Assembly (NCBI RefSeq): GCF_001043115.1
Contig: NZ_LFME01000016.1
Span: 1 to 64,000, forward strand
Origin: Xanthomonas sp. NCPPB 1128
GTDB lineage: Bacteria > Pseudomonadota > Gammaproteobacteria > Xanthomonadales > Xanthomonadaceae
Reading direction: 5' to 3'
Length of the DNA: 64,000 bases
The translations under genes were made by a program, and so were the position numbers. This document shows, in pieces, positions 2,764 through 23,788 of the stretch (the first letter of the stretch is position 1; each line of letters starts with the position of its first letter). The notes beneath the pieces were generated by a model. The model ran no database searches, was not told the origin of the DNA, and saw only the letters and a program-made list of their open reading frames with translations.

Positions 2764-3064
2764 TCGACCATCCGTGGCGTGTCAGAGCCACTGTACAAGC
2801 CGCGCGCGCTGCAGCAGTAGACATTTGGCAGTTACCCAAGGCGATCCGGTGGATCCTGGCTTGCAGGAGGTGGCCTCCACGGAACCAGAGCGGTTCACTA
2901 GACTCTTGGATATGTTCTTGCGGAAGCTGGCTGAGGCTTACATCGCTCCATTGGTTCTCAGCGTGTCTACAGAATAGGATTGGGGACTGGTCGCCACCTT
3001 GAGCCTCCATGGCACAATTGATTCGGAGATGGGGCAGTCAGGGAATTGGCAGGGGGCGAAGCGA
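2764..3064. other. divergent intergenic region upstream of the sspF-like operon
   Basis: This stretch separates the MASE1 gene from the plus-strand defence operon and should hold promoters for both. I found no convincing -35/-10 pair, no copy of the tRNA 3' end and no inverted repeat strong enough to call. Short ORFs cross it but show no family features. Confidence 0.4.
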
Positions 3065-6528: not shown

Positions 6529-9500
6529 CCGACCGCATTATTGGCCGCGTCGGCGCGGACATCTTAGCCAAGCGGGTTTCCAATCCCGGCCAGTCCGGCG
6601 ATTCTGCCGCGTTGTTCCGGCTCGACAAGCTCTCGTCCAGCCAGATTGCGGCTGTGGCGCGAGCGATCCTCGCTAATCCTGACCTGCTGGCTCGCGTGGA
6701 TCTCATGATCCCCGAGGCCTTGGTTGATGCCCAAAGCCTGCCGCCTGAGATCCTCATTCCGCATAACGCCGGCTACGTCCGCAACAACGCTGCGACCGTC
6801 AAGGCTGCAATCCTGACTGCTAACGGCAACGAGCACAACTTGGCCGACACGCTCGGCCACGTCATGGCCATCGGCGCCAAGGAGATGCGTGCCGACCCTG
6901 AATCCTGGGTCGAGGCTGCCTTGCACACCGGTGGGCTCGCGCCGGTGCCGGATGACCGCTCGGTGTTCCATGCGGCCTTGGGCGGATTGCTCGCCTCCTC
7001 TGAGCTCTCACTCGTCCAGCTTGGCGAGTTCTGCTCCGAAATTGTCGAGGCCATGTCTATCCGCGGGCTTGCCATCCGTGATGCCCTGGGCTTTGCAATG
7101 CCGCGTGCCGGTTTGCCCCGCGACACAGGGTTCTTCTCCAATGCAAAGAGCTTCGGACCGCTTCGCAAGCCCTGGCAGAAGGCCTTCGCCAAGCTCTTCA
7201 CGCAGCGCGCGCCGCTGTTAAAGAAACTTCGCCAGAACGGCCAGCCGCTGGATTCCGACGAGCTAATTGAGCGCATTGAGGCCAATGCGGCTGAGATCAC
7301 GGATGCCGCGCGCCTAGCGCTTGTTGCTTTCGTCAACGCTCCCGCGGGAGATCAGGAGGTGTCTTCCGCTCTGGCTCAGTTCGAGTGGGAGGCCGACGGC
7401 GTCTACCTCGCCTTCGACAAGCCCAAGGAGAAACAATTCGGATTGGCTGACTCGACCATCCGCTTCCTCGACCACGATTGCGACCAAGAGAATTCGCTCG
7501 ACCTCGAGGGCCGCCAGTTCTTGGAAGATTTGAAGTCGCGCGAGCGGCGCTCCGACTTTACCGAAGACGATGAGGAGTTCTTCATCAAGTACCGCCGGCT
7601 ACTTGAGCAAGATGCCAAGCTATGCGCGCGCTGGGAGAAGGCTCTCTATGGCAAGCCCATCGAATGCAACGACTTTTTCGATGGTTTCGCGCGCGTAGTG
7701 AACAGCCTACATGCGGGGCTGCGCGAGACCGAAGGCGAGCGCATCTTGCGCTTCACCGTGACCAAGGGTCGCAAGGAGTGGCGTGAGCGCTTCAATTACG
7801 ACGCCGGCAGCTACTTCTCGGCGATGTATCGTGGCTTGAAGGAGCTCATGGGTTCCAAGGCCGATTGGAAGGTTGAGCGTCTCGGAAATGCGAGCCTCCC
7901 CGATCCGCTTTTCGATTATGAGGCCTTCTTTGCCAAGGAGAAGGAGCTCCGCAGCGACAAGAAAAACAAGATGCGGCCGAATTCATCGCTCTCGCGCATG
8001 GCCTTGCAGATCAAGTTCGATGTGGCGCTAATCCAGTTCTTCAATGGCAAAGAGAATGTGCTCGCCAGGACCCAGCTCTTGTGGAGCTACAAACCCACCT
8101 CGATTGGCCTGTCGATGGTCGCAGATATGCGCCGCCTTTTGGAGAAGGGGGCGGCCGGTTGCACAGAAGTCCCGCGCCGCCTAGTAAGCAAGAAGGGTGG
8201 GGTGCAAAATGTCTCGCTGCTCGACACCGGCACGTTGGAGGCCACCTATTCCACCGACGCGGGTTCCTTGGTCCCAGCGGCCAGCAGGCTCCGCAGCCTG
8301 CGCCACGAGATAAAGGGCCGGATCAAGGACCTCGCGGAAGGCGGCTATCTAACTCCGCCGCAGCGCGACGAGGTCAAGGCATCCTGGGACAAGTTCGAGG
8401 AGGACTACATCAAGGCGATGGAGGACTTCGTCTCTATCGGCCTTCATGGCGAGGCCGTCATGCGCCAGGCGGAATCCTTCGGCGCCCTGATGGCGACCCT
8501 TATGTCCCAAGCGCGCGGCGACGTGTGCCGCTCGCGTCTGGTCTCCGAGATTCTTTCGGTAGGCACGGCCCGCGTGGCTGGCGACAACCCCGCGCTGATC
8601 ATCCCGCCATGGCACCCGGAGCGCATGAAGGCGTTGGCAGTGAAGTCCCGACGTGTCGCCGGATTTGCCACCCACTTGCTCTCCAGCAGCAACATCCTCT
8701 ATGGAGACCGCGAAATCTTCATGCGCGAGTTCTCCGACGAGATCGCCCATCCGTTCTATCCGGAGATCGCTGTCCTCAACCGGGCCGGCGCGCCGACGCT
8801 GGTGTCTGAGAGCAGCACGGTCAACGGCTATAGCCTCTTGGAATCGCCCACGCGGGGCAATCAGGATGCAATGACCGATGTGGACCCAGCTGCCGCTGCC
8901 AAGCAAGTACGAGAGCTCTTGGAGCGCTACGTTGGCTTGCAGCCTCATGAGGCATCGAACCTGAGCGTCGTACTTTACAACGCCGATGCGGCCGAGCTGC
9001 CGCTGGCTACCGTGCGGGAGCTCTCGTCGATTCAGGAGGACGGGAAGCTTCAATGCAGCGTGTCGGTGCGTCACTCGGATCCGGCAAAGCTGCGCAGCGT
9101 CTACGGTGAGCTGGTCAACAAGGCCGGAGAGGATCCGGACTTGCCCGTAGTCAGTGAGACCAGCGACAACTTCATCTCCAGGTTACGCATTGCGGTAACG
9201 CCTATCTCGGCCACGCCGAGCGAGAGCGCCCAGGGGTTCAAGGCCTTCGATGTAGCTTTCCTGCATGACGTGGTCTCGCGGGCGGCGCAGTCCGAATGGC
9301 TTTCTGTCACCTGGACGAACGATCGGCCGAATTTGGAGCACGCTCCCTCGCGCTGGTCCTACCGCAGCGTCTCGGGCGAGAATGAACTGAAATCCACTAC
9401 CTTCTTGGCCTGCCCTTGGCAGACGGCCTCGGGCTGGGCCTATGTGTCCGCAGTGGCTGCCGTGTGCCGCCAGCTTGATGCATTGCCTGGCGAACGCTTC

Positions 9501-11927
9501 CTGCCAGCCCGGCGCATCTCGCTGCAAAGCCCCGCGCTGGCCAGCATGATCAAGGACGCCCATGACTTGGCCGAGTGGGTCGCCACTTATGACGAGCTGC
9601 TCGACAAACGCCAACTTCAGCACAACGACATCACCGTCGTCCGCTATCGCCGCGGCTCCACTAACGGCCGCAATATGATCGTAAGCTCGACCTCCGAACT
9701 GCGTCTGCTAGGCGTGCTAGTGCGCCGCCGCTTGGACGAGCTGAATTTGCAACTCGATGCTTCCGAGGTCCAGGCCGCCGCTGACAAGGCCAAGCGCGAT
9801 GCGCTATCGGTCTCCGGCGATATCGTTTTGCGCGCAGCCAAGCGTGGCGTATCCGCAGGCGAAATGATCGGCCTGGTGCTTAGCCGCTATTTGCTCGCAG
9901 AGGAATTCAGAGCCGCCGCTGGCGGCGGGCAGATACTGACGGCGTACTTCCTGCTCGACGACTACGCAAGCTGGCTTTCGCAGCCAGAGAGCCGTATCGC
10001 CGACATCCTTGCGCTCAATGTCGAGGAACGGGAGGAGCGCGTTCGCGTAGTGATCTCAATCGTCGAATCCAAATACGTCGCCGCCGACAGCTTGGCAAAG
10101 GCGCGCCGCGACTCCAAGGACCAGCTCCTGACCACTCTCGGCATGTTCCGCGAGGCGCTTTTCGGCGATCCCGGCCGGCTCGACCGGGACGTGTGGTTAG
10201 CCCGCCTGGCCGATATGCTCATCGACGCCGACATCCCGCCAGGCATGACGGGCCTGATGGAGCGCGCGCGCTCGAAACTTCGTGAGGGCGATGTAGATAT
10301 CTCGCTGCGGGGCTACTCCCACGTCTACGTTCACACCTCGGACGCCGGCTCGGTTTCCGCCTCCGACCAGGAGCTTTTGGAAGATTCCGACGGCGTGAAA
10401 TCCTGGCAAGAGGTCTTCGATCGGTCCGATCTGCGAAAGCTCGCCGAGGCCTACGCTAAGGGCACCGGGGGACTCGGCGCCCGCGCTGCGCTGGGACCCC
10501 ACCAGCCCTGGGATGGGCATGGCTTCAAAAGGCCTGCCCCGCGCGTGCCATGGCTCGCCGCCATAGGCCAGCTCGCTAGCGGGGTGGGCGTGCTGTTGGA
10601 AGAAGCTCCAGGGGAAGATGAAGCCGCCGCCGCGACTCCGGGCACTAGCCTGGCGCAAGAGCCTTCGCAGGCTGCGCAAATCCCCGCCAAAGCTGACACC
10701 GTACCGCCGGCTCCGGCCCCAAGCCCTGCGCTGGCCGGCAACCTTGGTGCCGCTTTCTCAAAGCTGGTTGCCTCCAAGTTCGCGGGTGGCGCGCAGTTCG
10801 ACGCTGAGCGGGAGGAGTGGGCCCAGGAAGTCACCAAGAAGCTCAAAGCCGCGCTTAACAGTTACGGGCTACAAGCGGCCATTTTGGGGACGCGTCTGAC
10901 CCCCAATGGTTGCTTGGTGCGCCTAGCTGGCTCCGACCGGCTGCGCGTCGAAGACATTGAGAACAAGCGCACCCAGCTTCTGACCACGCACGCGATCAAT
11001 CTCGTCACTGTCCAGCCCAAGCCCGGCGAGATTGTGGTGACGGTCGCCGGCTCCAAACGCCAGTCCGTGTCGCTCTGGGAGCTGTGGTCTCGCCGCGAGC
11101 TCAACCGCAACGTCGCCGGCATCAATACGTCATTCCTCTTGGGCCTCCAAGAGATCAACGGCGCACTGCTGTATCTGAACCTTGGCTCGGAGTTTGGCGG
11201 GCTTTCGTCTCACGAGCCGCATTCGCTGGTGGCAGGTGCAACCGGTAGCGGCAAATCGGTGCTGATTCAGGCGCTAATCTTGGACATCGCTGCGACCAAC
11301 TCAAGGGATCTAGCGCAACTCATTTTGATCGATCCCAAAATGGGGGTCGATTACGCACCTTTGGCTGACTTGCCGCATATGCGCGATGAGATAGTTACAA
11401 CGAAGGAGAAGGCTAGCGAGGTACTCAAAGCGCTCGTTCAGGAGATGGAAGATCGCTATCGCGCGTTCGCGAAAGTCCGATCTCGGGATCTGCCGGCCTA
11501 CAACTCTAAGGTTTCGTCCGAGGAGCGCATGCCTATGGTGTTCTTGATCCATGACGAGTTCGCTGACTGGATGCTCGACGATGCCTACAAGGCGGCAGTG
11601 GGAGCCGCGGTTCAGCGGCTCGGCGTGAAGGCCCGTGCGGCCGGTATCCACTTGATCTTCGCGGCCCAGCGCCCCGACAAGGACGTGATGCCGATGCAGC
11701 TTCGGGAAAACCTGGGCAATCGCCTCATATTGAAGGTATCCAGCGAAGCGACATCCAAGATTGCGCTTGATCGACCGGGCGCCGAGCTGTTGCTCGGTCG
11801 AGGACATCTGGCCGCCAAACTCAACGGTGAACAAGGGCTCGTGTTCGCGCAAGCGCCGTTCCTTTCGGATCAGGAGATTGAGGCTGCGGTGGCAGCTATA
11901 GCCGCGGACAAAGAGGGCGCCGAATGA
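6522..11927 (+). CDS. sspH: SspH/DptH-like giant ATPase with C-terminal FtsK/HerA motor
   Basis: An 1801-residue protein; ATG 6522 follows GGAAGGGG. Residues 1-1360 are a long helical body with no motif I can name. A Pro/Ala-rich linker lies at about 1362-1405. The C-terminal 390 residues form an FtsK/HerA-type DNA translocase: Walker A GATGSGKS at 1572-1579, a strand IDPKMGVDYAPL, and Walker B VFLIHDE ending at about 1679, followed by FAAQRPDKDVM and ENLGNRLILKV segments typical of the family. The size and C-terminal motor match the H component of DndFGH/SspFGH. No nuclease motif is evident, so cleavage may come from a partner or from an unrecognised part of this protein. Its stop overlaps the next start (ATGA). 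Confidence 0.65.
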   Translation: MLTDRIIGRVGADILAKRVSNPGQSGDSAALFRLDKLSSSQIAAVARAILANPDLLARVDLMIPEALVDAQSLPPEILIPHNAGYVRNNAATVKAAILTANGNEHNLADTLGHVMAIGAKEMRADPESWVEAALHTGGLAPVPDDRSVFHAALGGLLASSELSLVQLGEFCSEIVEAMSIRGLAIRDALGFAMPRAGLPRDTGFFSNAKSFGPLRKPWQKAFAKLFTQRAPLLKKLRQNGQPLDSDELIERIEANAAEITDAARLALVAFVNAPAGDQEVSSALAQFEWEADGVYLAFDKPKEKQFGLADSTIRFLDHDCDQENSLDLEGRQFLEDLKSRERRSDFTEDDEEFFIKYRRLLEQDAKLCARWEKALYGKPIECNDFFDGFARVVNSLHAGLRETEGERILRFTVTKGRKEWRERFNYDAGSYFSAMYRGLKELMGSKADWKVERLGNASLPDPLFDYEAFFAKEKELRSDKKNKMRPNSSLSRMALQIKFDVALIQFFNGKENVLARTQLLWSYKPTSIGLSMVADMRRLLEKGAAGCTEVPRRLVSKKGGVQNVSLLDTGTLEATYSTDAGSLVPAASRLRSLRHEIKGRIKDLAEGGYLTPPQRDEVKASWDKFEEDYIKAMEDFVSIGLHGEAVMRQAESFGALMATLMSQARGDVCRSRLVSEILSVGTARVAGDNPALIIPPWHPERMKALAVKSRRVAGFATHLLSSSNILYGDREIFMREFSDEIAHPFYPEIAVLNRAGAPTLVSESSTVNGYSLLESPTRGNQDAMTDVDPAAAAKQVRELLERYVGLQPHEASNLSVVLYNADAAELPLATVRELSSIQEDGKLQCSVSVRHSDPAKLRSVYGELVNKAGEDPDLPVVSETSDNFISRLRIAVTPISATPSESAQGFKAFDVAFLHDVVSRAAQSEWLSVTWTNDRPNLEHAPSRWSYRSVSGENELKSTTFLACPWQTASGWAYVSAVAAVCRQLDALPGERFLPARRISLQSPALASMIKDAHDLAEWVATYDELLDKRQLQHNDITVVRYRRGSTNGRNMIVSSTSELRLLGVLVRRRLDELNLQLDASEVQAAADKAKRDALSVSGDIVLRAAKRGVSAGEMIGLVLSRYLLAEEFRAAAGGGQILTAYFLLDDYASWLSQPESRIADILALNVEEREERVRVVISIVESKYVAADSLAKARRDSKDQLLTTLGMFREALFGDPGRLDRDVWLARLADMLIDADIPPGMTGLMERARSKLREGDVDISLRGYSHVYVHTSDAGSVSASDQELLEDSDGVKSWQEVFDRSDLRKLAEAYAKGTGGLGARAALGPHQPWDGHGFKRPAPRVPWLAAIGQLASGVGVLLEEAPGEDEAAAATPGTSLAQEPSQAAQIPAKADTVPPAPAPSPALAGNLGAAFSKLVASKFAGGAQFDAEREEWAQEVTKKLKAALNSYGLQAAILGTRLTPNGCLVRLAGSDRLRVEDIENKRTQLLTTHAINLVTVQPKPGEIVVTVAGSKRQSVSLWELWSRRELNRNVAGINTSFLLGLQEINGALLYLNLGSEFGGLSSHEPHSLVAGATGSGKSVLIQALILDIAATNSRDLAQLILIDPKMGVDYAPLADLPHMRDEIVTTKEKASEVLKALVQEMEDRYRAFAKVRSRDLPAYNSKVSSEERMPMVFLIHDEFADWMLDDAYKAAVGAAVQRLGVKARAAGIHLIFAAQRPDKDVMPMQLRENLGNRLILKVSSEATSKIALDRPGAELLLGRGHLAAKLNGEQGLVFAQAPFLSDQEIEAAVAAIAADKEGAE

Positions 11928-12631
11928 AGATCGAGGAAGCGACTGACACGATCGCTAAGTTCTTCAATGACCTGATAGGTGCGTGGGTGCCTGGATCCGT
12001 CTTGGCGGTTGGTCTGACGCTCATGCACCTTGGCCCAGCTCAACTCAAGTCAGTGTTCAAGCTCGGCGACTCTACCGCTGCGGCCCTAACGTTCGCTGGA
12101 GTCCTTTTCGCTGGCGGGCATGCTTTGCTTGCCCTTCATGAACAGGCTTTTAAGAGGCTGCTGGCCAGGGTCAAGATCGCAAAGGTGTTTGACGAAGCAG
12201 GAGCGAAGAAGCGCCAGTCTTACGAATGGTTCGCCGAGCTGGTCAAGACTCAGCAGACTGGCTCCAGTGCGAAAGATTGGGACTACAACGACTTGCGAAG
12301 TGTGGCCTTCTCCGTTTCCACTGAGGCCTCGTCTATGGGTCGCAGGTTTATGTTTATTTCACTGTTGTGCAATGGCGTTGGTACTGCGCTGGCGATCGTT
12401 GCCATCGACTTTGCAGCGTGTTCATTGCTCTCACCCAAGTTACTTTTCGCCTACGATCAAGCGGCGCCTTGGTGGGCGCAGACGCTCTTGCTTTTGGGCC
12501 TGGCGTTGGCGCTCTTCAAGCGCGGCGAGGTTTTCTACAGCCGCGCGATGGCGACTCCCTTTTCGATCGCGGTCGCGGAGCTGAAATTTAAGAAGGATGC
12601 CAATGCTGGCAAGACCACTCCCAACCCTTAG
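11924..12631 (+). CDS. membrane protein coupled to sspH
   Basis: A 235-residue protein with the ATG inside the sspH stop (ATGA). Four hydrophobic helices are visible: about 20-40 and 50-70 near the N-terminus, then about 143-165 and 183-205, separated by a 70-residue charged cytosolic loop (RLLARVKIAKVF to SSMGRR). No family is recognised and no signal peptide is present. Tight coupling to SspFGH and to the deoxyribosyltransferase-like gene downstream argues for a shared job. A membrane anchor or effector is one option. It is not part of the PT restriction modules I know. Confidence 0.6.
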   Translation: MKIEEATDTIAKFFNDLIGAWVPGSVLAVGLTLMHLGPAQLKSVFKLGDSTAAALTFAGVLFAGGHALLALHEQAFKRLLARVKIAKVFDEAGAKKRQSYEWFAELVKTQQTGSSAKDWDYNDLRSVAFSVSTEASSMGRRFMFISLLCNGVGTALAIVAIDFAACSLLSPKLLFAYDQAAPWWAQTLLLLGLALALFKRGEVFYSRAMATPFSIAVAELKFKKDANAGKTTPNP

Positions 12632-13001
12632 AAAGATCTATCTGGCAGGCGGCTTCAGATCGAATTGGCAGGCGGAGGTGACTTCTCGCCTGGCCGGATC
12701 ATTTGAACTAATCGATCCGAGCTCCCACAACATCCAAGACCCTTCCGAATACACGCGATGGGACTTGGAGGCCGTTCGCAAATCCGATATCGTCTTGGCC
12801 AACATGGAGGCGTCTAACCCCGGCGGATATTCGCTCGCGCTGGAGGTCGGATTCGCGAACGCGCTAGGCAAACGAATCTTCATGGTCGACCAGATCGAGG
12901 ATCCCACGGTGAGGCGCTACTTCGAGATGGTACGTCAGTGTTCGGAGCGTGTTTTTCTAAAACTAGGCGATGCTCTCGATCACCTCTTGTCGCTGGACTA
13001 A
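12603..13001 (+). CDS. nucleoside 2-deoxyribosyltransferase-like protein
   Basis: A 132-residue protein. ATG 12603 is preferred over ATG 12597 because AAGAAGG is correctly spaced only for the former. The start overlaps the preceding gene by 29 bases. The pattern IYLAGGF, then D-P, then WDLEAVRKSDIVLANM, then GGYSLALEVGFANALGKRI is that of the nucleoside deoxyribosyltransferase (NDT/RCL) fold, which includes enzymes breaking N-glycosidic bonds of deoxynucleosides or deoxynucleotides. The Glu in LALEVGFA is placed like the family's catalytic Glu. In this setting it might alter or deplete nucleotides, but its substrate is unknown. The TAA overlaps the stop of the convergent gene. Confidence 0.6.
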   Translation: MLARPLPTLRKIYLAGGFRSNWQAEVTSRLAGSFELIDPSSHNIQDPSEYTRWDLEAVRKSDIVLANMEASNPGGYSLALEVGFANALGKRIFMVDQIEDPTVRRYFEMVRQCSERVFLKLGDALDHLLSLD

Positions 13002-15964
13002 AAAGATTCACCTAGCTGCATCGCGTATTCCTTGAGGATGTCGCTCGGCAGTCCCCAGCGCCGCCACAAATAAGCGATAAGCCAGTGGTGCCCTCTTTGG
13101 GGGTGCCCACCAATGACTCCGAGACTGTTGCATGCGGCTGCAAGACGATAAAATTTAATAGGGGCAGTCTTTGCGTCTCGGGCATCACGCTCGAATTGTG
13201 CAATCGCCGCTTCGAGATTGAGCAGCGCCTTCAATGTGTGGACCGCGTCGCTGCCAAGTTCGTCCCACCAAACCTCGTCTATCGCGCATACAGACTCCTC
13301 CGCCCATGGAAGCAACTCCGTTCGCAACGATGTAGGAAAGGCCAGATTCTTCTCTTTGTTGCTGAAGCTGATCAGGATGATCATCCCGAACAGATTGCGA
13401 AGCGCGCTGGAACAGGCGCTAAGCTCGAAAGGATATCGGGCAAAACAGCCTTTGATCGCACCAGCAACATCGTCGATGCCAGCTTCGATGATCTCGTTGT
13501 TCGGCATGCTTGGCCAGTCGCTCTCAGCAGCGAACTCGAGGAGCAAGTGCCCAAATTCGCTGAGCGCATTGCCCAAGTATCCTCGCATGCCTATGGCATG
13601 GAACTGCTTCGCTGCTTCTGTGTAGTGAACGGCGGCATCTGACAAGTTTCCGAGATACGCCTCGCAGTTGCCGATTTGATGGTGGAGCTGCCCAGCATTG
13701 ACTGCGATGCCTTGCCCTCGAACTAGTTCGAGTGATCTGCGATAAGCATTAGCCGCTGTGGCGAATTCGCGTCTCACAAGCAACGCCCCACCCAATAAGC
13801 CATAGGAGGACGAAAGGTCATTCTGAATGTCTTCTAGGTCTGCAATCTCGTCAGATGACTTCGAAGCGAATGAGAGTGCCTCATTGAAGTGTTCAATGGC
13901 GCTAAGGGCTTGCTCATGCACTACGTCGTTGTCGTCTCGAAGACTGCCCGTTATCGCACGACAAAGAGCCACATTGCCTAACGTCTCTGGGTCATCTGAT
14001 CTGTGGCCGATTTCTTCCATCAGGGCCATCGCGGCGGTGACGTCGATGCGCTCTTGGCTTCTGTGGGCCAGGCCAACAGTCATCGTAAGCAGATTGCTGG
14101 CGCTTCGCGGCCTCTTATCGCGCAATGCAATTCGGGCTCCACGTAGCATCACCTGGCTGCCGACGTGGCCTAGGTGGATGACAAAAAAATATCGCATAAG
14201 TTCAGCGCAGATGCCCGAGGCCATTAGGCCGAGGCGCGGATCGTAGGGTTGCTTTTCTGCGAGGTCCAGCACCCTGAGCAAGTTAGGCAGTTCCTCTTCG
14301 AAGCGGCCAACCATGTTCGGAAGGCCTCCATTCTGCTCAGAGTGCGTCGAGATGACGGCCGCCATCACCGCAAAGCTTTTTGCTAGCTCCATGGTGATGC
14401 TTTTGGCCTCGTCAGGGCGTTCTTTACTCCATCGAGCGACTGCATAGCTCGCAATTGGCGACAACATGCGGACGCGCTCACGTGGTTCGCCGCGGTTCGT
14501 CCCCTCGATGAGGCCCCATCGCCAAGCGCCCGCAATTGCCGACCTTCCGTCGCCAACCCACTCTTGGCTATCTTCCAGCATCCGGCTGAATAGTCCGCCT
14601 GGTGCATTTGCTATCAGATACAGGAGCTTTCGCTCGTCCTCCGAAAGTGCGTCATATGCGAGAGAAAGGCACGCCCTAAGAGAGGTGCGCCGGTTTTGCG
14701 ACGACCTCTTTTGAACTTCCAGTAGGTCGGCGCCACGCCGACGAATTTGGTCCAGCGCGATGGCGCTTGATCCAAAGTGGTTGATCAACATCGCTTCAAG
14801 GCGCAAGGTCAGAGGGTGGCCGTCTGCGAACGCGACGAGTTCCTGCCAGCTGCTCGCATCGGTTGGTGTGCCGGGGCGTAGGTAGTGGGAGAGAATCTGC
14901 TCGCCAGCTTCAACTTCAATTCCTGCTAGCCGCACGTAACTGTCCACTCGGGTTTGCGCCAAGTCCACCTGCGACGTGATGATGATCTGCGTTTCGATCA
15001 ATTGTGTCTGCAGTTGCGTGATCCAATCGTCAACCGCGTCGATTTCCCGGGCTTGGATTTGTTCCAGTCCATCGATGACTAAGCATGCCTGCAGCTTGTC
15101 TAGGGCGGATTCCAGCGATCCACCACCTCCTTGCTGGGCGCTGCGAAGCGAAACCTCCAAAGCCGCCCTCATCGCCTCAATGCCGTCGTATCGTTCTGCC
15201 TCGACCCAGAGCACGGGCCGTTCCGTGTCGGTGGCTTGAAGCGCCCTTAGCACAAGTTGAGTCTTGCCTATGCCACCTGGCCCATGCACAAGAAGATATC
15301 GGTCGGTGCGCAGCGAGTCACGGATACGTTCCAGTTCCTCCGCGCGACCGACAAATACTGGATCAGGTGAGGGCGACGGAAAGTGATGTCTGAGCTTCAA
15401 GCGGCTCCGTAGGTTTCCTCTGAGTCGATCAATTCCTGATGCTTTGAGGCCTCTGAGCTCTTCCGTCGGAAGACTATGGTGCGCGTCATGCTCGTTATGG
15501 CATGCCGAGCAAATCCTAAGAAGATTGTGATGATGGTTGCATCGAGAGTCCGCCCAAGGATCGATGTGCGCCGTCTGCACTGCGACACCCGAACCACACC
15601 GCATGCAACACCCACCGCTTTCGGCGTGCAGATATGCAAGCACCTTTTGTGGCAAGTCGCGGCGCGCTTCGCCTGCCTCGGCCCACGGTTCCATTAGGTA
15701 GCGGTCGAATGCCTCGAGATCCGAAACAAGAAATCGAGTCGAGCCTTCGACTTCATGAGTCGGCAGTTGGCGACTGTCCCCTGGGCGCTTCTGAAAACTA
15801 CGGCTCGTATAAAAGAACAATAGCTCAGGAGTAATTCCGAGATGCAGAGCCGCTTCCGCAGCAATCAGCCAATCTTTCGACAAAGGAAGCAAAGCTTCGG
15901 GGCCTGGCGAGGGAGTACCCATCTCGCTTCCGCTAGGAGGGGATTGGGACGCGGCTTCCTTCAC
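12998..15964 (-). CDS. HTH-HNH-NB-ARC-TPR (STAND) nuclease coupled to sspD
   Basis: A 988-residue protein. Residues 30-95 resemble an excisionase/MerR-like helix-turn-helix. Residues 117-160 form an HNH module with zinc-type cysteines: Cys119/120/123, His133-x-Asp135, His146-Asn147, Cys152/155 and His159. A STAND ATPase follows, with Walker A GPGGIGKT at 228-235 and Walker B CLVIDGLEQ at about 294-302. The C-terminal half is built of TPR-like helical repeats (for example GQLHHQIGNCEAYLGNLSDAAVHY). In known STAND proteins such repeats sense a ligand and the N-terminal nuclease is released on oligomerization. The ATG overlaps the sspD stop as ATGA, so it is the last gene of the PT operon. Its base composition is visibly less GC-rich than sspC. 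It could be an extra effector, a PT-dependent nuclease or an independent anti-phage gene. Confidence 0.7.
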   Translation of the reverse strand: MKEAASQSPPSGSEMGTPSPGPEALLPLSKDWLIAAEAALHLGITPELLFFYTSRSFQKRPGDSRQLPTHEVEGSTRFLVSDLEAFDRYLMEPWAEAGEARRDLPQKVLAYLHAESGGCCMRCGSGVAVQTAHIDPWADSRCNHHHNLLRICSACHNEHDAHHSLPTEELRGLKASGIDRLRGNLRSRLKLRHHFPSPSPDPVFVGRAEELERIRDSLRTDRYLLVHGPGGIGKTQLVLRALQATDTERPVLWVEAERYDGIEAMRAALEVSLRSAQQGGGGSLESALDKLQACLVIDGLEQIQAREIDAVDDWITQLQTQLIETQIIITSQVDLAQTRVDSYVRLAGIEVEAGEQILSHYLRPGTPTDASSWQELVAFADGHPLTLRLEAMLINHFGSSAIALDQIRRRGADLLEVQKRSSQNRRTSLRACLSLAYDALSEDERKLLYLIANAPGGLFSRMLEDSQEWVGDGRSAIAGAWRWGLIEGTNRGEPRERVRMLSPIASYAVARWSKERPDEAKSITMELAKSFAVMAAVISTHSEQNGGLPNMVGRFEEELPNLLRVLDLAEKQPYDPRLGLMASGICAELMRYFFVIHLGHVGSQVMLRGARIALRDKRPRSASNLLTMTVGLAHRSQERIDVTAAMALMEEIGHRSDDPETLGNVALCRAITGSLRDDNDVVHEQALSAIEHFNEALSFASKSSDEIADLEDIQNDLSSSYGLLGGALLVRREFATAANAYRRSLELVRGQGIAVNAGQLHHQIGNCEAYLGNLSDAAVHYTEAAKQFHAIGMRGYLGNALSEFGHLLLEFAAESDWPSMPNNEIIEAGIDDVAGAIKGCFARYPFELSACSSALRNLFGMIILISFSNKEKNLAFPTSLRTELLPWAEESVCAIDEVWWDELGSDAVHTLKALLNLEAAIAQFERDARDAKTAPIKFYRLAAACNSLGVIGGHPQRGHHWLIAYLWRRWGLPSDILKEYAMQLGESF

Positions 15965-16803
15965 TTGTGGCAGACGGCGCAGGAGCCGTTGCCGTCCTCG
16001 ACCCCGTAGATGTCGTCGATATCATCCGAGCAGGCCTTTACAGGCCGCAGCGGATTGATGGGGATGGCCTTGCGCATGCGGGCGCGGCGGCTCTCATATT
16101 CCGCTTCGATCTCCGCAATGCGTTCAGGCTGCTCCATATCTACCAGCGATTCGCCCTTCGACCAAGTGAAGGGGGAGCCATGCTCCAACGCGTCCTTCTC
16201 CAACGCCTTGGCATCTTCATATGCCTGCGGATGGCGCTCTCTCAGGCGCACCCACTCGATCTTCTGCTGGAAGAAGCAGAAGGTGCAGCCGCTGCGCGAT
16301 CGCCACTCGTAATACTTGGGATAGCCGACGCCGGAGTTCTCCAAGATGTCGATGACGCCTGCCTTGTCGATGCCCGCCTCGCGGAAGGGGAGCTTCACGA
16401 ACAGGTTGTCGGCCTTGGTCGAGTAGCCATCGCGGTAGTCCTCATCGGCGCGGATGGCCACATAGGACGTGACCTTGTCACCGTTCGCGAGCATCGGCCT
16501 GACCCAGTTCTCGAACGGGGCCAGCTTTAGCTTGCGGGTGCACCAGCGGGTGCTGGGATTGGGCAGGAAGTGGTTGTATTGGCGAAGCCAGAAGCTGAAA
16601 TCGCGGTCAGGGTTCAACCGAAGGATCGTCTTGCCAAGCTTTCCCTCAAGCTTACCCAGGAACTCGTAGACCTCGGGCAGCTCTTCGCCTGTGTCGGTAT
16701 AGAAGTATTCGATGTTGAGCTCGGGATGGCGCTCGCGCATATAGACGGCCAGAGCCGCGCTGTCCTTTCCTCCAGAGATCCCCAGGACGTGCCGCTCAGC
16801 CAT
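15961..16803 (-). CDS. sspD: SspD-like ATP pyrophosphatase (PAPS reductase family)
   Basis: A 280-residue protein with the PP-loop SGGKDS at 10-15, typical of PAPS reductase/ATP-pyrophosphatase enzymes. In PT systems (DndC, SspD) this enzyme activates the DNA backbone phosphate before sulfur is inserted. Cysteines at 88, 173, 176, 258, 275 and 278 could bind an iron-sulfur cluster as in DndC; the CTFC and CAVC pairs stand out. It overlaps sspC by 8 bases and the downstream HNH-STAND gene by 4. The linkage to a DUF4007 protein and a large ATPase favours SspD over DndC or a sulfate-assimilation CysH. Confidence 0.75.
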   Translation of the reverse strand: MAERHVLGISGGKDSAALAVYMRERHPELNIEYFYTDTGEELPEVYEFLGKLEGKLGKTILRLNPDRDFSFWLRQYNHFLPNPSTRWCTRKLKLAPFENWVRPMLANGDKVTSYVAIRADEDYRDGYSTKADNLFVKLPFREAGIDKAGVIDILENSGVGYPKYYEWRSRSGCTFCFFQQKIEWVRLRERHPQAYEDAKALEKDALEHGSPFTWSKGESLVDMEQPERIAEIEAEYESRRARMRKAIPINPLRPVKACSDDIDDIYGVEDGNGSCAVCHK

Positions 16804-19800
16804 TGGCTGCCTCCTTGTCGATAGACGCCAGTTTCATTCCAGCCTTGGCCAGGATCGCCAACACGACGTCCGTTCCCAAACCTTGGCCTTCCAACATGGA
16901 GACGACCTCGAGGACCTTGGCCTCCACGGTCTTGCGATGGCGGTCGGAAATAGCGAACGAGTGCGAGATCGTCTTGGTGTCTGCGCCCGCGCCGATGACC
17001 ACGGCGATGGCTTCGCTGTGAGCCTTGCGCCCTTGCACGGCGGCGAACGCCTCGGATTCGCGGAAGCGGCGCGCTAACTTCGCCAGTTCCAAGATTGCGA
17101 CGTCGATGTGCCGATCCACCCAATCGCGGGGCGGCTTCTCCGCTGCCAGGCTCAGGATGCCTTCGAGCGATGCTCTCGACCCGTCGTAGTTGACCAAACG
17201 CGTAGCGAAGCCATCAATTTGGAAGTCCCCCGAGATGCCGGAGACGGACTTCGCACGCTCGTGCAAGCTTTCCAAATCGTCGCGGCTCGCGTCCAAAGCG
17301 GCGAGCATCTTGGCTTCGACCTCAGCAAGCATCTTTCCGTAGGCGCTGGCGAGTTCTTGCAGCGGCGCGCGCAGCGCCTTCACATAAGCCTTGCCGTCGG
17401 ATGCGCCCAGGAGCGATGCCAGATCGACGAACAGTACCTTGTGTGGGTCGCTGGCCTTCAAAAGCATGTCGCGCATGTCACGGGCTGTTTGTCCAAGCCG
17501 CGAGGTGCGCCGGGCCCATTCGGGCAGGTTGAAGACCATAGCCACTAGGCCGCGGGCGGCCTCGAGCGGGTCGGCCGCGCCGGCGTTTTCGCCGATCTCG
17601 GCCAACAGCTTGGAAATGCCTTTGAGGATCCGGTTCTTGTCCTCGTCGATAGCCACCCAGCGCAGCGAAAAGCGATCGGGGTCTTGCAGGCACTCGTCGA
17701 TGTCGAAGTCGGTGAGCCGGGGTACGAACATCCCATCCTTGTAGACGGCGATGTTGGCCTTGTGGGCCAGCAGGAAAGTGGTGAGGAACACAGGCTGGAT
17801 GCCCAACTTCATGCCGAACGGCGGTGCGCTCCACAGTTTGTAGATCTCGTGCGCGCCCACGCGGGCGTCCGCGTCAGAGAAGAGGGCTCGCGTGGCGCTC
17901 CAGAGATTTTGGAAGCCTTCGGCGAACCCATCGTCAGGCGGCATGCAGCGCCAGGCCCCAGAGGCGTCTTGGCGATGCAGCCCCGTACGCTTGAGCAGCG
18001 TCTCATAGAGGCCGCGCTCGGCCGGGAAGCCCTCGAATCCCAATGCCTCTTGGCCTTCTGCATTGATCATCGCGTGCAACAGGTCGCGACGCGCCTTCAC
18101 GCTGTTGCTCGACACGCTGTCGCGGTTAACTAGCTCGCTCCACACCGGAGGCGAATCACCGAACATGTCTTCGGCCAGGCTCGACGCAACCGGTGAGAGC
18201 TTGGAGCCTGGCTCGACGATTTGCTCGGTTCCGTCGTGCCACTTTGCCAGCGACACCGCGGCTTGCAGTTGGTCCTCCAAGTCGGCGCGGGTGGCGGCTA
18301 GGCGCGCGTAGACTTCGCGGCGTGCGACGGCGTCGCCTGAGAGCTCGTGGCGATCTTTGACTTGCTCCAAGGCGACCAGTTCCGACGAGAGCTCGGCGAT
18401 GCGGGCGTGGTTTGCAGGAATGCCTACCATCACGGGCCATGGGCTCAACTTGGAGCATCCCTGTGCTCGTATCCGCGCGTCCCTGGGCTTCATGCCTTTA
18501 CTAGGCAGCGCGAGGATGAAGGTCCCGAACTCGCCCTTCTTGGGTTGGTAGTTCGCGGCGATTTTCTCAGCCTGCTCGATGCTGCATAGCGAGAGCTCCA
18601 TCCATCGCATGGAGCCGGTCTCGTGGTAGTGCCGCTTGGCCACGACCGGATGCAGACCCATGAGCTGCGCCAGGCGGCCGTAGTCGATGCCCGGAGAGGC
18701 GGCCAAGGTTTGGGCGATGGCCGCGTCGATGTCGAAGTCGCTGCCTTCGAAGACAGACCAGGCCCCGGTGTAATTCTTGTAGAGGGCGACTTTGAGATCG
18801 GAGAGCTTTTTGAGGGCAGCGTCCAGCTCCTCGCGCGTCTTGTCGTAGAATAGCGCGCCGATCACCGCGGCGTCGGCCGCCAGTCCCGAGCCATTGCGGA
18901 ACATGTCTATGACCGCGATGTTTTTGATCAGCGAGACGAGCAACGCATCGCCCGTCTTGGCTTCGGCTCGCTCGACCGCCTCGACGGCTTGCGACCAGCG
19001 GTGGCCGTCCGGAGAGGCTAGGATCGCCGGCTCCAAGTTCGAGCGCAGGTAGTCCCAGTAGTCGCTTGGACGATACCAACTCGCGTCCTCGCGAAGTGTC
19101 GAGTTCAGATAAGAGCGGAAACCATGCGGCTCCACAGACGAGAGGAAACCGAAGGTGCTGCGCTCGTTCTGGCCGAACTGCCGCTTTGAGATCGGGCCCA
19201 GGAGCGCAGCCATCGCTGGATGCAGCGGCCAACAGGCTTCCAAGGCCTTGGCGAAGTCTTTCCCCACCGCAGGGCGGCGGGAGCGGATCGCTTCGGCTAT
19301 GGCCTTGGACGCCTCGGGTATCCAGGGAGGGCTATCCTTTGCTTCGATCGCGCGACCGATGAGCTCGACGACCTCGTCGCTCGCGGCTACAAAGGGCAAG
19401 TCGATGTAGCGGCCTTGCACTTTGGCCCAATCGTCGCGGGTATCGATGCCTAAGCGGGCTGAATATTGCGCAAAGGACTGATGCAGCACGCCCACGACCA
19501 CTAGGCGACCCTCGGAGCGCGCGGCGGCTTCGGCTAGCTCTTGGAAGAAGTAGACGTCGTCCCCGGAGCCCAGTGCGGAAGCCTCGAGGAACTTGCCCAT
19601 CTCGTCGATAATGACCAGCGCGCCGTCATGGGGGCGACTTTTGGTCTCTTCGAGAAGCTCGGCGATCAGCGATTGCGCGTTGGGCTTGCTGCGACCATCG
19701 ATATTGCGACCTTGCGCTCGCCGCAGAGACGCATGCAGCTCTGCTACCACGCTTCCGCGCCGGCCCACGGCCGGCACGAGCAGCCACCCCTTACGCACGG

Positions 19801-20131
19801 GGAAGGCCTTGTCAAAGGCAGGCTTGGAGTCCAGTCGCAATGCCTTGCGCGACTTGGTCCGCAGATTCTTGTCAGGGTGCAGCGCGCTCGCCAAGGCTAC
19901 GGCAAGCGAACTCTTGCCACCGCCGAAGGGGCCAGTCCAGGTGAAGCAACGTTGGTTGGTGCCCGAGAGTTGCTTGCACATCCCATCGACCACAGCAGAC
20001 GCGGTCGCGTGGCAGATGTAGCCGGAAAGGGCGTCGGCGCGGCCGATATCGGCATCGACGCGGATGGAGCGCTGGTACTGGCGCGATATTTGGACGATGT
20101 CCGACAGAGCCAGTTGCTTCTTGTCAGTCAT
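16796..20131 (-). CDS. sspC: SspC-like large P-loop ATPase
   Basis: An 1111-residue protein. Walker A GPFGGGKS is at 67-74 and Walker B ALVIIDEMG at 171-179, followed by a helical AAA-like region. The remainder is long and mainly helical, with coiled-coil-like stretches near 610-650 and 930-980. Size, position between sspB and sspD, and the N-terminal ATPase fit SspC, the ATPase of single-strand phosphorothioation. The start overlaps the sspB stop by 8 bases and the end overlaps sspD by 8, a compact arrangement that implies translational coupling. A general AAA ATPase of another defence system is the alternative, but the neighbours argue against it. Confidence 0.7.
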   Translation of the reverse strand: MTDKKQLALSDIVQISRQYQRSIRVDADIGRADALSGYICHATASAVVDGMCKQLSGTNQRCFTWTGPFGGGKSSLAVALASALHPDKNLRTKSRKALRLDSKPAFDKAFPVRKGWLLVPAVGRRGSVVAELHASLRRAQGRNIDGRSKPNAQSLIAELLEETKSRPHDGALVIIDEMGKFLEASALGSGDDVYFFQELAEAAARSEGRLVVVGVLHQSFAQYSARLGIDTRDDWAKVQGRYIDLPFVAASDEVVELIGRAIEAKDSPPWIPEASKAIAEAIRSRRPAVGKDFAKALEACWPLHPAMAALLGPISKRQFGQNERSTFGFLSSVEPHGFRSYLNSTLREDASWYRPSDYWDYLRSNLEPAILASPDGHRWSQAVEAVERAEAKTGDALLVSLIKNIAVIDMFRNGSGLAADAAVIGALFYDKTREELDAALKKLSDLKVALYKNYTGAWSVFEGSDFDIDAAIAQTLAASPGIDYGRLAQLMGLHPVVAKRHYHETGSMRWMELSLCSIEQAEKIAANYQPKKGEFGTFILALPSKGMKPRDARIRAQGCSKLSPWPVMVGIPANHARIAELSSELVALEQVKDRHELSGDAVARREVYARLAATRADLEDQLQAAVSLAKWHDGTEQIVEPGSKLSPVASSLAEDMFGDSPPVWSELVNRDSVSSNSVKARRDLLHAMINAEGQEALGFEGFPAERGLYETLLKRTGLHRQDASGAWRCMPPDDGFAEGFQNLWSATRALFSDADARVGAHEIYKLWSAPPFGMKLGIQPVFLTTFLLAHKANIAVYKDGMFVPRLTDFDIDECLQDPDRFSLRWVAIDEDKNRILKGISKLLAEIGENAGAADPLEAARGLVAMVFNLPEWARRTSRLGQTARDMRDMLLKASDPHKVLFVDLASLLGASDGKAYVKALRAPLQELASAYGKMLAEVEAKMLAALDASRDDLESLHERAKSVSGISGDFQIDGFATRLVNYDGSRASLEGILSLAAEKPPRDWVDRHIDVAILELAKLARRFRESEAFAAVQGRKAHSEAIAVVIGAGADTKTISHSFAISDRHRKTVEAKVLEVVSMLEGQGLGTDVVLAILAKAGMKLASIDKEAANG

Positions 20132-21044
20132 AAGCGCGCCTGATCATGTTTTTTATGTCTTCCTTGGACAGATCCTTCCGGTGGACCTGCCGTAAACCGG
20201 CGGAGTCGGTCCACTCCAGCTTGCGCCTTGTGAAGTCCGAGAGAGCAATCAGTCGTTGGGCGATCGACTCCTCGTCTAGCTTAAAGACACGGCCAGGTGA
20301 ACCTTCCGCGTAGGCGACGGTTTCGAAGGCCAGCGAGCTTTGGCCATCGGCCTCGCGGTTCCAGAAGTCGACGAGGGCATACGCGAAGATGCCATCATGC
20401 AGCGAAGCCTTCGGGCCACGGCGGAAGGCATATTGTCCTTTATGGACCTCTTGCAGTAGTCCCAACTCGCCAAGCAGCGGCTCGGCGAAGTCCTCGGGCG
20501 AGCCGCCGACTACACGGGGAGCATAGCTGCGCAGGCACGTCTCCAAGTCTCGGGAGATCGTCGAGACTGAGAGGCGGTGCTTCGGATCGAGTTCGCGAGC
20601 GTATCGCTCCAGAGGCTCTTCGAGCTCTTGGCGGGTGAAAGTCGGCGCCGTCACATTGTTGAACAACCAGTACCACGTCGTCGAACGGAAGCAGCGGCCA
20701 GCAAGCTGCCAATGGGCAAGCCATGCCGTGGATGGACTCTCTGCATAGGGATCAAGACCGCCATCCTGCAGGATCTCACTAGCAAGCTTCCCAATACGAA
20801 AGTTGCCCTGTTCTTCATACAGGACGCCACAGGCTAGAGCCCAATGCCGGATGGAGGCAACCATGTTCTTGCCTACCCCAAAAGTAGCAATGGCATCGTC
20901 GCCCGTAAACGTTGCCTTCGGGATACTGCCACCTGCAACAGCTTGATCGTAGGCCTTTTTTAGCCACATCTGACGCAGGGGGAAGGTCTCGTGCCCCGAG
21001 AAATGGGCAGGAATCGAGGCTGATGTTGCGCGGTGGCGAGTCAT
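20124..21044 (-). CDS. sspB: SspB-like DUF4007 protein (probable strand-nicking component)
   Basis: About 306 residues from ATG 21044; an in-frame GTG lies 6 bases upstream and neither start has a clear Shine-Dalgarno. The N-terminal pattern FSGHETFPLRQMWLKKAYD is characteristic of the DUF4007 family, to which the SspB nickase of single-strand PT systems belongs. The next segments (DAIATFGVGKNMVASIRHWALACGV) suggest a winged-helix DNA-binding part. It lies 73 bases after sspA and overlaps sspC. The nicking role comes from published SspB work, not from catalytic residues seen here. Confidence 0.7.
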   Translation of the reverse strand: MTRHRATSASIPAHFSGHETFPLRQMWLKKAYDQAVAGGSIPKATFTGDDAIATFGVGKNMVASIRHWALACGVLYEEQGNFRIGKLASEILQDGGLDPYAESPSTAWLAHWQLAGRCFRSTTWYWLFNNVTAPTFTRQELEEPLERYARELDPKHRLSVSTISRDLETCLRSYAPRVVGGSPEDFAEPLLGELGLLQEVHKGQYAFRRGPKASLHDGIFAYALVDFWNREADGQSSLAFETVAYAEGSPGRVFKLDEESIAQRLIALSDFTRRKLEWTDSAGLRQVHRKDLSKEDIKNMIRRAYD

Positions 21045-21117
21045 GGACACATTCTATGCCCGACTGGAGGAGTTCACCAGTCCGAAACCGACCTCGCGGG
21101 CGGTAGAGACGTGCGCC

Positions 21118-22275
21118 CTATCCAAGCCTGCTCATACAGGCTGCAGCGTCAGCCAATATTCGTGCCGCTTCGTAGGCCTCAGACGTGGTCGATTGGCGAC
21201 CAAACCCGATGCGAACGACCTCCCGGGCCTCGTCGTCGGAGAACCCCGAGGCTTGCAGAACGTGTGAGCGATGAATGGAACCCGATGTGCAGGCAGAGCC
21301 GCTTGAAATGCTCAACTTGGGACTTGCGCGCATGACGAGGTCATCAGCATCGACCCCTATGAAGCGAATGCTTCTCAAGCCAGGAAGGTTTGGGCCGCCG
21401 CAATCGAACTTTTTGAAGTTAGCCCCGAACTCGTTGAGAAAATTACAGAACGAATCCGCAAGGACTTCGGTGTGCAGCGCATCGCGCTCCATGCTGTTTG
21501 CGACTATTTCGCACGCTTTTCCGAAGCCAGCTATCAGAAACACAGGTAGAGTTCCTGGGCGAAGGCCAGATTGTTGCCCTCCCCCAAAAAGTAGAGGTTG
21601 CATTAGTTTCCTGACTCGTGGCGAGATATAGAGAGCTCCAATTCCGGAGGGGCCATACATTTTGTGGGATGAAAGGCTTAATAAATCGACTCCCATTGCA
21701 GCAACGTCAATCCTTAGTCTTCCCGCCGTTTGCGCAGCATCGACATGCAAAATTCCATTTTTTGATGTCAATAAATTTGAAATTTCCTCAATTGGTTGTA
21801 TGGTCCCTATCTCGTTGTTGGCATGCATCACGGAAGCTAAATTAAGATCAAAGCGACCAAACTCAAGTATCTTCGTTGCAGCCTCCACTTCGACGCGGCC
21901 GTGCCTGTCGACAGGAATGGTCTCCACTGAAACGCCGCGTGTGCCTAGATGCGTCCCTACCTCAATAACGGCCTTGTGTTCAATTGAGGAATGCAAAAGT
22001 CTTGAGCCATTCGGATTCTGAGAAAGTACGCCTTGCAACGCGAGGTTGTTCGACTCCGTAGCCCCTGACGTGATAACCAGCTCACTCGGGGATGCTCCAA
22101 TCAGGCTCGCGATAGCCTGCAGAGCAGTGTCGACCGCCTTGGCGGCTCGCTGGCCAGCCAGGTGCCCGGCATGAGGATTGGCATGGGTAGCTCCAAGCCA
22201 GGGAAGCATGGCTTCGACAACCACGGGATCGGGTTGCGTTGAGGCATTACAGTCCAAGTAAATCGGAGGCTTCAT
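21118..22275 (-). CDS. sspA: SspA-like cysteine desulfurase (IscS/NifS family)
   Basis: A 385-residue PLP enzyme. ATG 22275 is chosen (AGGT eight bases upstream) over an in-frame TTG 15 bases earlier. Visible motifs are SGATESNN (70-77), HVDAAQ (177-182), the PLP lysine in LSSHKMYG (Lys205) and the sulfur-carrying cysteine in SSGSACTSG (Cys329). It would take sulfur from cysteine and pass it to the SspD/SspC machinery. The gene contains AT-rich stretches (around 21660-21850) unlike sspB-sspC beside it, so it may have a separate origin. It could also serve general Fe-S assembly, but its place at the head of sspBCD argues for PT use. Confidence 0.75.
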   Translation of the reverse strand: MKPPIYLDCNASTQPDPVVVEAMLPWLGATHANPHAGHLAGQRAAKAVDTALQAIASLIGASPSELVITSGATESNNLALQGVLSQNPNGSRLLHSSIEHKAVIEVGTHLGTRGVSVETIPVDRHGRVEVEAATKILEFGRFDLNLASVMHANNEIGTIQPIEEISNLLTSKNGILHVDAAQTAGRLRIDVAAMGVDLLSLSSHKMYGPSGIGALYISPRVRKLMQPLLFGGGQQSGLRPGTLPVFLIAGFGKACEIVANSMERDALHTEVLADSFCNFLNEFGANFKKFDCGGPNLPGLRSIRFIGVDADDLVMRASPKLSISSGSACTSGSIHRSHVLQASGFSDDEAREVVRIGFGRQSTTSEAYEAARILADAAACMSRLG

Positions 22276-22290
22276 TAGCGGACCTGGCAA

Positions 22291-22407
22291 CTACGGGGAA
22301 GAGACGAACTTCGCACGCGATACCTTGCCACATTTGGCATAGGCCGTTGCAATGAAGGCCGTCACTACGTCGCCCGCCTGCCAGTCGTAGCGCTGCCAGT
22401 GGATCAT
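22291..22407 (-). CDS. 38-residue ORF coupled to the integrase gene
   Basis: The ATG overlaps the integrase TGA as ATGA, and AGGGGAG lies five bases upstream, a strong ribosome site. The peptide begins MIHWQRYDWQAGD, has a central hydrophobic stretch VVTAFIATAY, and ends in a basic segment. Its TAG stop lies 15 bases before the sspA ATG. I recognise no family. It may be a tiny regulator or excisionase-like factor, or a relic of a longer gene. The signals around it are better than expected by chance. Confidence 0.45.
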   Translation of the reverse strand: MIHWQRYDWQAGDVVTAFIATAYAKCGKVSRAKFVSSP

Positions 22408-23612: not shown

Positions 23613-23676
23613 GTGAGTCAGCTGGTTGTGAGTCGGATTGACCCATTGTCGCTCCACGACTCACAGCGTGACTCAC
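23613..23676. promoter_or_regulatory. four-copy GTGAGTC/GACTCAC array at the integrase start
   Basis: GTGAGTC occurs at 23613-23619 and 23628-23634, and its complement GACTCAC at 23658-23664 and 23670-23676, so two direct copies face two inverted copies around a 23-base centre. The array abuts ATG 23612. This fits arm-type integrase sites or an operator for int autoregulation. Confidence 0.5.
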
Positions 23677-23694
23677 TTTATTGCCGGATGCAAC

Positions 23695-23781
23695 TGGACA
23701 TCACTGGACTTCAGCGGACTGAAAATAGCCATTTTTAGGTAATTTCCTGCGAACTTTGGACTAATCCGGACACCCCTGGAC
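23695..23781. repeat. TGGAC short repeats between integrase and tRNA
   Basis: TGGAC appears at 23695, 23705, 23757 and 23777, all in the same orientation, in the 176-base gap between the integrase and the tRNA 3' end. They could be arm- or core-type sites for integrase or excisionase, but the motif is short. Confidence 0.3.
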
Positions 23782-23788
23782 TGCTTTT

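What the first reader, a model, noticed from the sequence alone, without database searches (positions are those of the whole stretch)
12998..16803. HTH-HNH-NB-ARC-TPR protein encoded as the last gene of a phosphorothioation operon
The 988-residue gene begins inside the sspD stop (ATGA), so it is co-translated with the PT-modification enzymes rather than merely nearby. It joins a helix-turn-helix, a zinc-type HNH nuclease, a STAND ATPase with intact Walker A, and TPR sensors. Known PT partners (SspE, SspFGH, DndFGH, sulfur-binding HNH proteins such as ScoMcrA) are not STAND proteins. It may sense invasion or loss of PT marks and fire a nuclease, an abortive layer over SspFGH. Seen: domains and coupling. 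Inferred: the role.
Basis: partly seen in the sequence, partly recalled or inferred. Interest (0 to 1): 0.87.

Follow-up and report, generated by a model that had tools for sequence, protein, structure and literature searches.

The report
Nuclease-fused immune switch in DNA-sulfur locus
Behind a bacterial DNA-sulfur-marking operon lies a gene for a DNA-cutting domain fused to an immune-switch ATPase; it sits in a pocket where related loci carry nothing or other defence-like genes, so it looks like an exchangeable extra weapon rather than a fixed part of the marking system.

Summary
The gene is real (window 15964-12998, minus strand) and follows sspABCD. Its domains hold up: a winged-HTH-like segment (by eye), an HNH nuclease with H133/N147/H156 and four cysteines, and a STAND ATPase with intact Walker A and GxP; the C-terminus is helical with only weak TPR signal.

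The coupling claim fails as stated. The overlap is GTGA, not ATGA; AAGTGA is sspD's own Lys-stop and recurs in loci lacking this gene. ATG 15922 is a likelier start. A true ATGA overlap lies at sspH and its next gene.

Two loci of the same family with 93-96% identical SspD lack the gene; nucleotide homology stops at the sspD stop and resumes near the sspH end. Of 19 convergent sspBCD/sspHGF loci, 10 have an empty junction, 4 hold SspE or an SspE-like gene, 5 (this window included) hold other cargo. None of 49 other sspD loci matches this protein.

Best reading: a rare NLR-like STAND protein with a DNA-nuclease effector, exchangeable cargo of a PT-defence locus. PT sensing is possible, not shown.

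The parts
12998..15964 (-). HNH-STAND gene: 988 codons from GTG 15964; likelier start ATG 15922 (974 aa)
   Evidence: open frame; start argued
15695..15877 (-). winged-HTH-like segment, residues about 30-90
   Evidence: conserved with Methylobacterium proteins; the HTH label is by eye
15470..15652 (-). HNH nuclease domain, residues about 105-165 (H133, N147, H156; C120, C123, C152, C155)
   Evidence: PHROG HNH E 7.4e-8; residues; hhalign to another HNH protein, probability 94; Pfam below cut-off
14615..15370 (-). STAND ATPase core, residues about 199-450
   Evidence: FxSxx_TPR E 3.2e-15, below cut-off; AAA_16 E 3.8e-7, below cut-off; motifs
13001..14614 (-). helical C-terminal part with weak TPR signal, residues 451-988
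   Evidence: Pfam TPR_2 at 760-786, below cut-off; motif scan; low-confidence helical model
15961..16803 (-). sspD
   Evidence: PADLOC E 1.2e-136
16796..20131 (-). sspC
   Evidence: PADLOC E 0
20124..21050 (-). sspB
   Evidence: PADLOC E 3.6e-118
21118..22290 (-). sspA
   Evidence: PADLOC SspA E 2.8e-116, DndA E 5.6e-112
2999..4975 (+). sspF
   Evidence: PADLOC E 3.2e-254
4972..6528 (+). sspG
   Evidence: PADLOC E 1.2e-226
6522..11927 (+). sspH
   Evidence: PADLOC E 0
11928..15960 (.). junction between sspH and sspD: the variable cargo slot
   Evidence: homology to L034, L056 and L057 stops at 15960-15963 and resumes at 11878-11899; survey
11924..12631 (+). 235-aa protein, probably membrane-bound (by eye); ATGA overlap with sspH
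   Evidence: 26% identical to the N-terminal part of a 362-aa slot protein in L042
12597..13001 (+). 134-aa nucleoside 2-deoxyribosyltransferase-like protein; ends tail-to-tail with the HNH-STAND gene
   Evidence: Pfam Nuc_deoxyri_tr2 E 7.9e-9, above cut-off; 47% identical to the C-terminal part of the L042 protein

Best explanation
The protein is a bacterial NLR-like immune switch: an N-terminal DNA-binding plus HNH nuclease effector, a central STAND ATPase and a helical C-terminal sensor. A phage product or infection state sensed by the C-terminal part would let the ATPase oligomerise, bring HNH domains together and so cut DNA, ending the infection by phage-DNA cleavage or by death of the cell. 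It is carried as exchangeable cargo in the junction between the convergent sspBCD and sspHGF operons and is probably transcribed with sspABCD. Shown here: domains, position, gene order, clean replacement at the junction, other effector genes in the same junction of sister loci. Inferred: nuclease activity, oligomerisation, trigger, outcome, and that PT marks are not required.
For: Effector-STAND-sensor order with intact Walker A and HNH residues. Same-family loci with 93-96% identical SspD carry other genes at that place, with nucleotide homology breaking at the sspD stop and resuming near the end of sspH. 10 of 19 convergent loci have an empty junction, so nothing there is needed for SspBCD-FGH. 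Filled junctions hold SspE (L056, L057, L067) or an SspE-like gene (L059), nuclease, ATPase and helicase-like genes (L034) and a deoxyribosyltransferase-like gene (L042). The HTH-HNH module occurs without ssp genes in the stretches held of 8 Methylobacterium or Methylorubrum loci.
Against: No full-length relative was found, so nothing shows the architecture is conserved or selected. Pfam HNH and STAND scores lie below their cut-offs. The TPR sensor is thinly supported and the model is poor. SspE in the same junction speaks for a PT-linked role instead. The second acidic residue of Walker B is not evident (LVIDG).
Confidence: 0.5

Rival explanations
1. PT-gated restriction: the HTH-HNH part reads PT marks or their absence, the STAND domain is the switch, and the protein does the job that SspE does in sister loci.
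For: SspE, or an SspE-like gene, in the same junction in 4 of 19 loci; no SspE in this genome; weak matches of the N-terminus to modification-dependent enzymes: PADLOC mREase_IV E 7.3e-4, TagI E 0.01.
Against: No sulfur-binding or SRA domain detected by Pfam; SspFGH is already present; SspE lies on the sspH strand, this gene on the sspD strand; absent from the nearest PT loci; N-terminal relatives without ssp genes in the stretches held.
Confidence: 0.2
2. A guard of the PT system: it senses loss or inhibition of Ssp proteins, for example by a phage anti-restriction protein, and then kills the cell.
For: Position at the end of the modification operon; STAND architecture; backup nucleases are described beside PT and BREX genes (passages of PMC10853773 and PMC12839542).
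Against: No full-length relative and no conserved pairing with ssp genes: 0 of 49 sspD loci; nothing here tests an interaction.
Confidence: 0.12
3. A transcription regulator: winged HTH plus STAND plus helical repeats, with a relic HNH, controlling the island.
For: STAND-only matches L050, L051 and L054 begin with segments that look like winged-helix regulators (sequences; label by eye); a LuxR-family regulator model matches the P-loop at E 8e-7, far below its cut-off.
Against: HNH residues and cysteines are intact; the gene is last in its operon, away from a promoter.
Confidence: 0.08
4. A recent, non-functional or toxin-remnant passenger captured with the slot and of no use to the cell.
For: Found in a single genome of those searched.
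Against: The frame of 988 codons is intact, with active-site residues kept.
Confidence: 0.1

Closest known systems
SspE (GmrSD_N plus GmrSD_C/HNH partner of SspABCD)
   Same: Nuclease gene in the same sspD-sspH junction in L056, L057, L067 and, as a shorter relative, L059; HNH-type chemistry
   Different: No GmrSD_N domain here; a STAND ATPase instead; opposite strand
ScoMcrA/TagI-type modification-dependent HNH enzymes
   Same: HNH domain behind a DNA-binding segment; weak TagI and mREase_IV matches
   Different: No SRA or sulfur-binding domain detected; STAND core added
Bacterial STAND defence proteins (Avs type)
   Same: N-terminal nuclease effector, STAND core, C-terminal sensor (plan recalled from the literature; Avs4 model E 0.0053 over the P-loop)
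   Different: Avs4 score 14 of 1500 bits needed; HNH effector; NB-ARC-like core
FxSxx-COOH system TPR protein and PH0952 (6mfv)
   Same: STAND-TPR core: E 3.2e-15 over residues 199-450; E 4.3e-4
   Different: Score 55.7 of 300 bits needed; match confined to the STAND core
Methylobacterium/Methylorubrum HTH-HNH proteins (506-519 aa)
   Same: Residues 27-183 at about 29-31% identity
   Different: Cysteine-rich repeats in place of the STAND part; the HNH asparagine is not kept

Membership tests
STAND NTPase (AP-ATPase/NB-ARC type) | Walker A P-loop | tested here: met
   GPGGIGKT at 228; AAA_16, nSTAND1 and FxSxx_TPR matches, all below cut-off
STAND NTPase (AP-ATPase/NB-ARC type) | Walker B and GxP motif of the nucleotide-binding arc | tested here: inconclusive
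   GHPL at 382 present; Walker B LVIDG has one clear acidic residue; motif definitions recalled
STAND NTPase (AP-ATPase/NB-ARC type) | repeat sensor at the C-terminus | tested here: inconclusive
   one weak TPR_2 unit, one motif hit, helical low-confidence model
STAND NTPase (AP-ATPase/NB-ARC type) | ligand-driven oligomerisation | not testable with these tools
   needs protein work
HNH nuclease | H-N-H residues with flanking cysteine pairs | tested here: met
   H133, N147, H156, C120, C123, C152, C155; PHROG HNH E 7.4e-8; Pfam below cut-off
Avs (AVAST) STAND proteins | match to an Avs family model at its cut-off | tested here: not met
   only Avs4, E 0.0053, 14 of 1500 bits; no Avs model in PADLOC at E 0.001
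SspE | GmrSD_N (DUF262) plus GmrSD_C | tested here: not met
   neither found in this protein; both in L056 and L059
SBD/SRA-HNH PT-dependent enzymes | sulfur-binding or SRA domain before the HNH | tested here: inconclusive
   none detected by Pfam; the structure job for the N-terminus failed, so a remote fold is not excluded
Core component of the Ssp PT system | conserved presence with sspBCD or sspFGH | tested here: not met
   0 of 49 other sspD loci; 0 of 10 whole genomes bearing sspD

The most novel reading that the evidence does not exclude
A PT-gated NLR: the STAND protein takes the place of SspE as reader of the PT mark, with PT state controlling assembly of an HNH nuclease, so that DNA-backbone marking and inflammasome-like switching are joined in one operon.
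Probability: 0.18. Interest if true: 0.85.

Novelty: new variant of a known kind. Interest (0 to 1): 0.52.

Why it matters
Wang et al. found 2,211 of 2,678 sspBCD sets without sspE or sspFGH and suggested that further partners exist (PMC8092258, one section read). The sspD-sspH junction, empty in 10 and filled in 9 of 19 loci, is a defined place to look for them. An HNH effector on a STAND switch would add another DNA-cutting type to bacterial NLR-like proteins. If PT gates it, DNA marking and NLR-type switching would be linked in one gene set.

Tried and rejected
Full-length relatives: plasmids, 1 record of 72,556, N-terminus only; viral contigs, 2 stretches, no relative; 100 kin genomes, own genome plus 5 weak local matches; 369 class genomes at E 1e-8, own only; 385 family genomes at E 1e-5, own only; 299 phylum genomes at E 1e-5, own plus 4 genomes with STAND-only matches; 10 sspD-bearing genomes, none (the tool warns that an empty answer without a positive shows nothing). 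These samples overlap. The one genome-contig scan used the N-terminal module with two peptide patterns; 7 of 104 stretches were relatives, so full-length relatives elsewhere are not excluded. The N-terminal module found nothing in phages or viral contigs (212 stretches, none a relative); its Methylobacterium relative found only itself in plasmids. A P-loop fragment found one viral-contig STAND protein without ssp genes sought (L055).

ATGA coupling: rejected. Base composition: GC3 of the gene is 0.60 against 0.72-0.81 for sspC, D, F, G, H, but sspA (0.54) and sspB (0.66) are low too, so it does not show a separate origin. Promoter and terminator scan: 2 promoter-like and 6 terminator-like sites, no more than in shuffles. 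Attachment repeat of the tRNA 3' end: none in the window; contig C16 starts at window base 1. The full-length model (mean pLDDT 46.3) was too poor for fold searches; none was run.

Papers: eight searches listed no STAND partner of Ssp and no sspD-sspH cargo slot that I could see. I read passages of PMC10853773 and PMC12839542, outline and abstract of PMC11662687, outline and one section of PMC8092258; all others only as listings with the start of the abstract.

Rows dropped: of 69 plasmid records with sspD, 40 were listed and 22 fetched (left out: Acinetobacter, near-duplicates, one already held as L042, low-identity records). L033 is cut before sspH and is not among the 19. L064 and L065 look like duplicates but both stay in the 49; one search surveyed 9 of the 10 viral loci. 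One search skipped L034 and L035; one search covers all 49.

Full report
What is there. On the minus strand sspA, sspB, sspC and sspD (22290 to 15961) are followed by a 988-codon frame, 15964-12998. On the plus strand sspF, sspG and sspH (2999-11927) converge on it. Between them, also on the plus strand, lie a 235-aa protein, probably membrane-bound by eye (11924-12631), and a 134-aa nucleoside deoxyribosyltransferase-like protein (12597-13001; Pfam E 7.9e-9, above cut-off), which the finding does not mention.

Start and coupling. sspD ends CAC AAG TGA, so a GTG start would overlap it as GTGA, not ATGA. Of 49 other sspD genes, 7 end in AAGTGA: among them L033 and L034, whose next gene starts at an ATG 17 bases on, and L078, L083 and L087, which have no gene in the junction. 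The overlap is thus a by-product of sspD's own end. The N-terminal relatives begin near our M15 and a GGAAG precedes that ATG, so I take ATG 15922 (974 aa) as the likelier start. Co-transcription with sspABCD remains likely: no minus-strand promoter-like site lies between (a consensus scan only). A true ATGA overlap is sspH with the 235-aa gene.

Domains. Residues 27-183 match a 519-aa Methylobacterium aquaticum protein at 30% and seven further Methylobacterium or Methylorubrum proteins. These carry cysteine-rich repeats, not a STAND domain, and none of the eight loci shows an ssp gene in the stretch held, which is only 4.6 to 20 kb. HNH identity rests on PHROGs (E 7.4e-8), a profile comparison with another HNH protein (probability 94) and the residues H133, N147, H156, C120, C123, C152, C155; Pfam scores are below cut-off and TagI is a weak match (E 0.01). 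The HTH label for residues 30-90 is by eye. The STAND core has Walker A, a Walker B with one clear acidic residue, and GHPL; the best curated match is FxSxx_TPR over 199-450, E 3.2e-15, but 55.7 bits against a cut-off of 300. TPR evidence is thin. The AlphaFold2 model is poor (mean pLDDT 46.3), with a helical C-terminal half.

Rarity. No full-length relative was found (limits under Tried and rejected). STAND-only matches at E 5.6e-9 to 2.5e-6 came from 4 of 299 phylum genomes besides the own one; those that could be read as whole frames (L050, L051, L054) start with segments that look like winged-helix regulators (label by eye).

The junction slot. I collected 49 other sspD loci: 17 from whole genomes, 10 from viral contigs and 22 of 69 plasmid records. 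Eighteen have a convergent sspH; with the window, 19. Ten have at most 100 bases between the two stop codons: L041, L071, L073, L074, L078, L081, L082, L083, L085 and L087. Nine are filled. L056, L057 and L067 hold SspE and L059 a shorter SspE-like gene. L066 has a GHKL-type ATPase and a 675-aa protein. L042 has one gene joining a part like our 235-aa protein to a deoxyribosyltransferase-like part. L080 has a 489-codon frame of unknown kind. L034 has a HEPN-like gene (RNLRNH motif by eye; no Pfam support) behind sspD, and endonuclease-like, HATPase and helicase-like genes behind sspH. The ninth is the window, which shares the L042 gene pair and adds the HNH-STAND gene. In the window, L034 and L042 cargo lies directly behind sspD on its strand. 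The HNH-STAND protein matches none of the 49 loci at E 0.01.

Clean replacement. Against L034 the window is 93.7% identical in nucleotides from 21065 to 15960, then nothing, then 94.8% from 11878 to 2869. L056 (81%) and L057 (73-76%) break at 15963 and at 11890 or 11899. L033 (97.3%) shows the left break only. Two nearly identical PT loci in the same family thus carry wholly different cargo; their genomes showed no match to the protein.

How it most likely works. STAND immune proteins are thought to hold an effector silent until a ligand binds the sensor (recalled); here the effector would be the HNH. That is inference from architecture. The PT link is open: SspE in the same junction raises it, while SspFGH already present, the opposite strand and absence from the nearest loci lower it. 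No SspE was found in this genome with the PADLOC model PDLC02790, whose control rang in 5 of 14 genomes.

What is known. Wang et al. report sspBCD mostly without sspE or sspFGH and propose further partners (PMC8092258, one section). Surveys of PT and BREX loci describe wHTH-SRA-HNH enzymes and backup nucleases (PMC10853773, PMC12839542; passages); searching their text for TPR and NB-ARC gave no occurrence. I found no description of the sspD-sspH slot in the eight paper searches listed.

Verdict. A real and unusual gene.

Noticed in passing
window 11924-13001 (+): Two overlapping frames (235-aa, probably membrane-bound, and deoxyribosyltransferase-like) correspond to one 362-aa fused protein in L042 (26% and 47% identity); the second ends tail-to-tail with the HNH-STAND gene.
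   Followed up: partly
window 22404-23864: Phage-type integrase beside a tRNA-Met gene: the PT locus looks like an island; no attachment repeat in the window.
   Followed up: partly
L061, L069, L070, L072 and, with another nuclease, L034; near sspD: A recurring set of PLD-like nuclease, HATPase and DEAD-box helicase genes behind sspD: perhaps a further Ssp-linked module.
   Followed up: no
L084 and L086, behind sspD: Protein-kinase genes (in L084 with a DUF262 gene) follow sspD on the opposite strand.
   Followed up: no
L087:11931-17389: sspH reads as two separate frames; described only.
   Followed up: no
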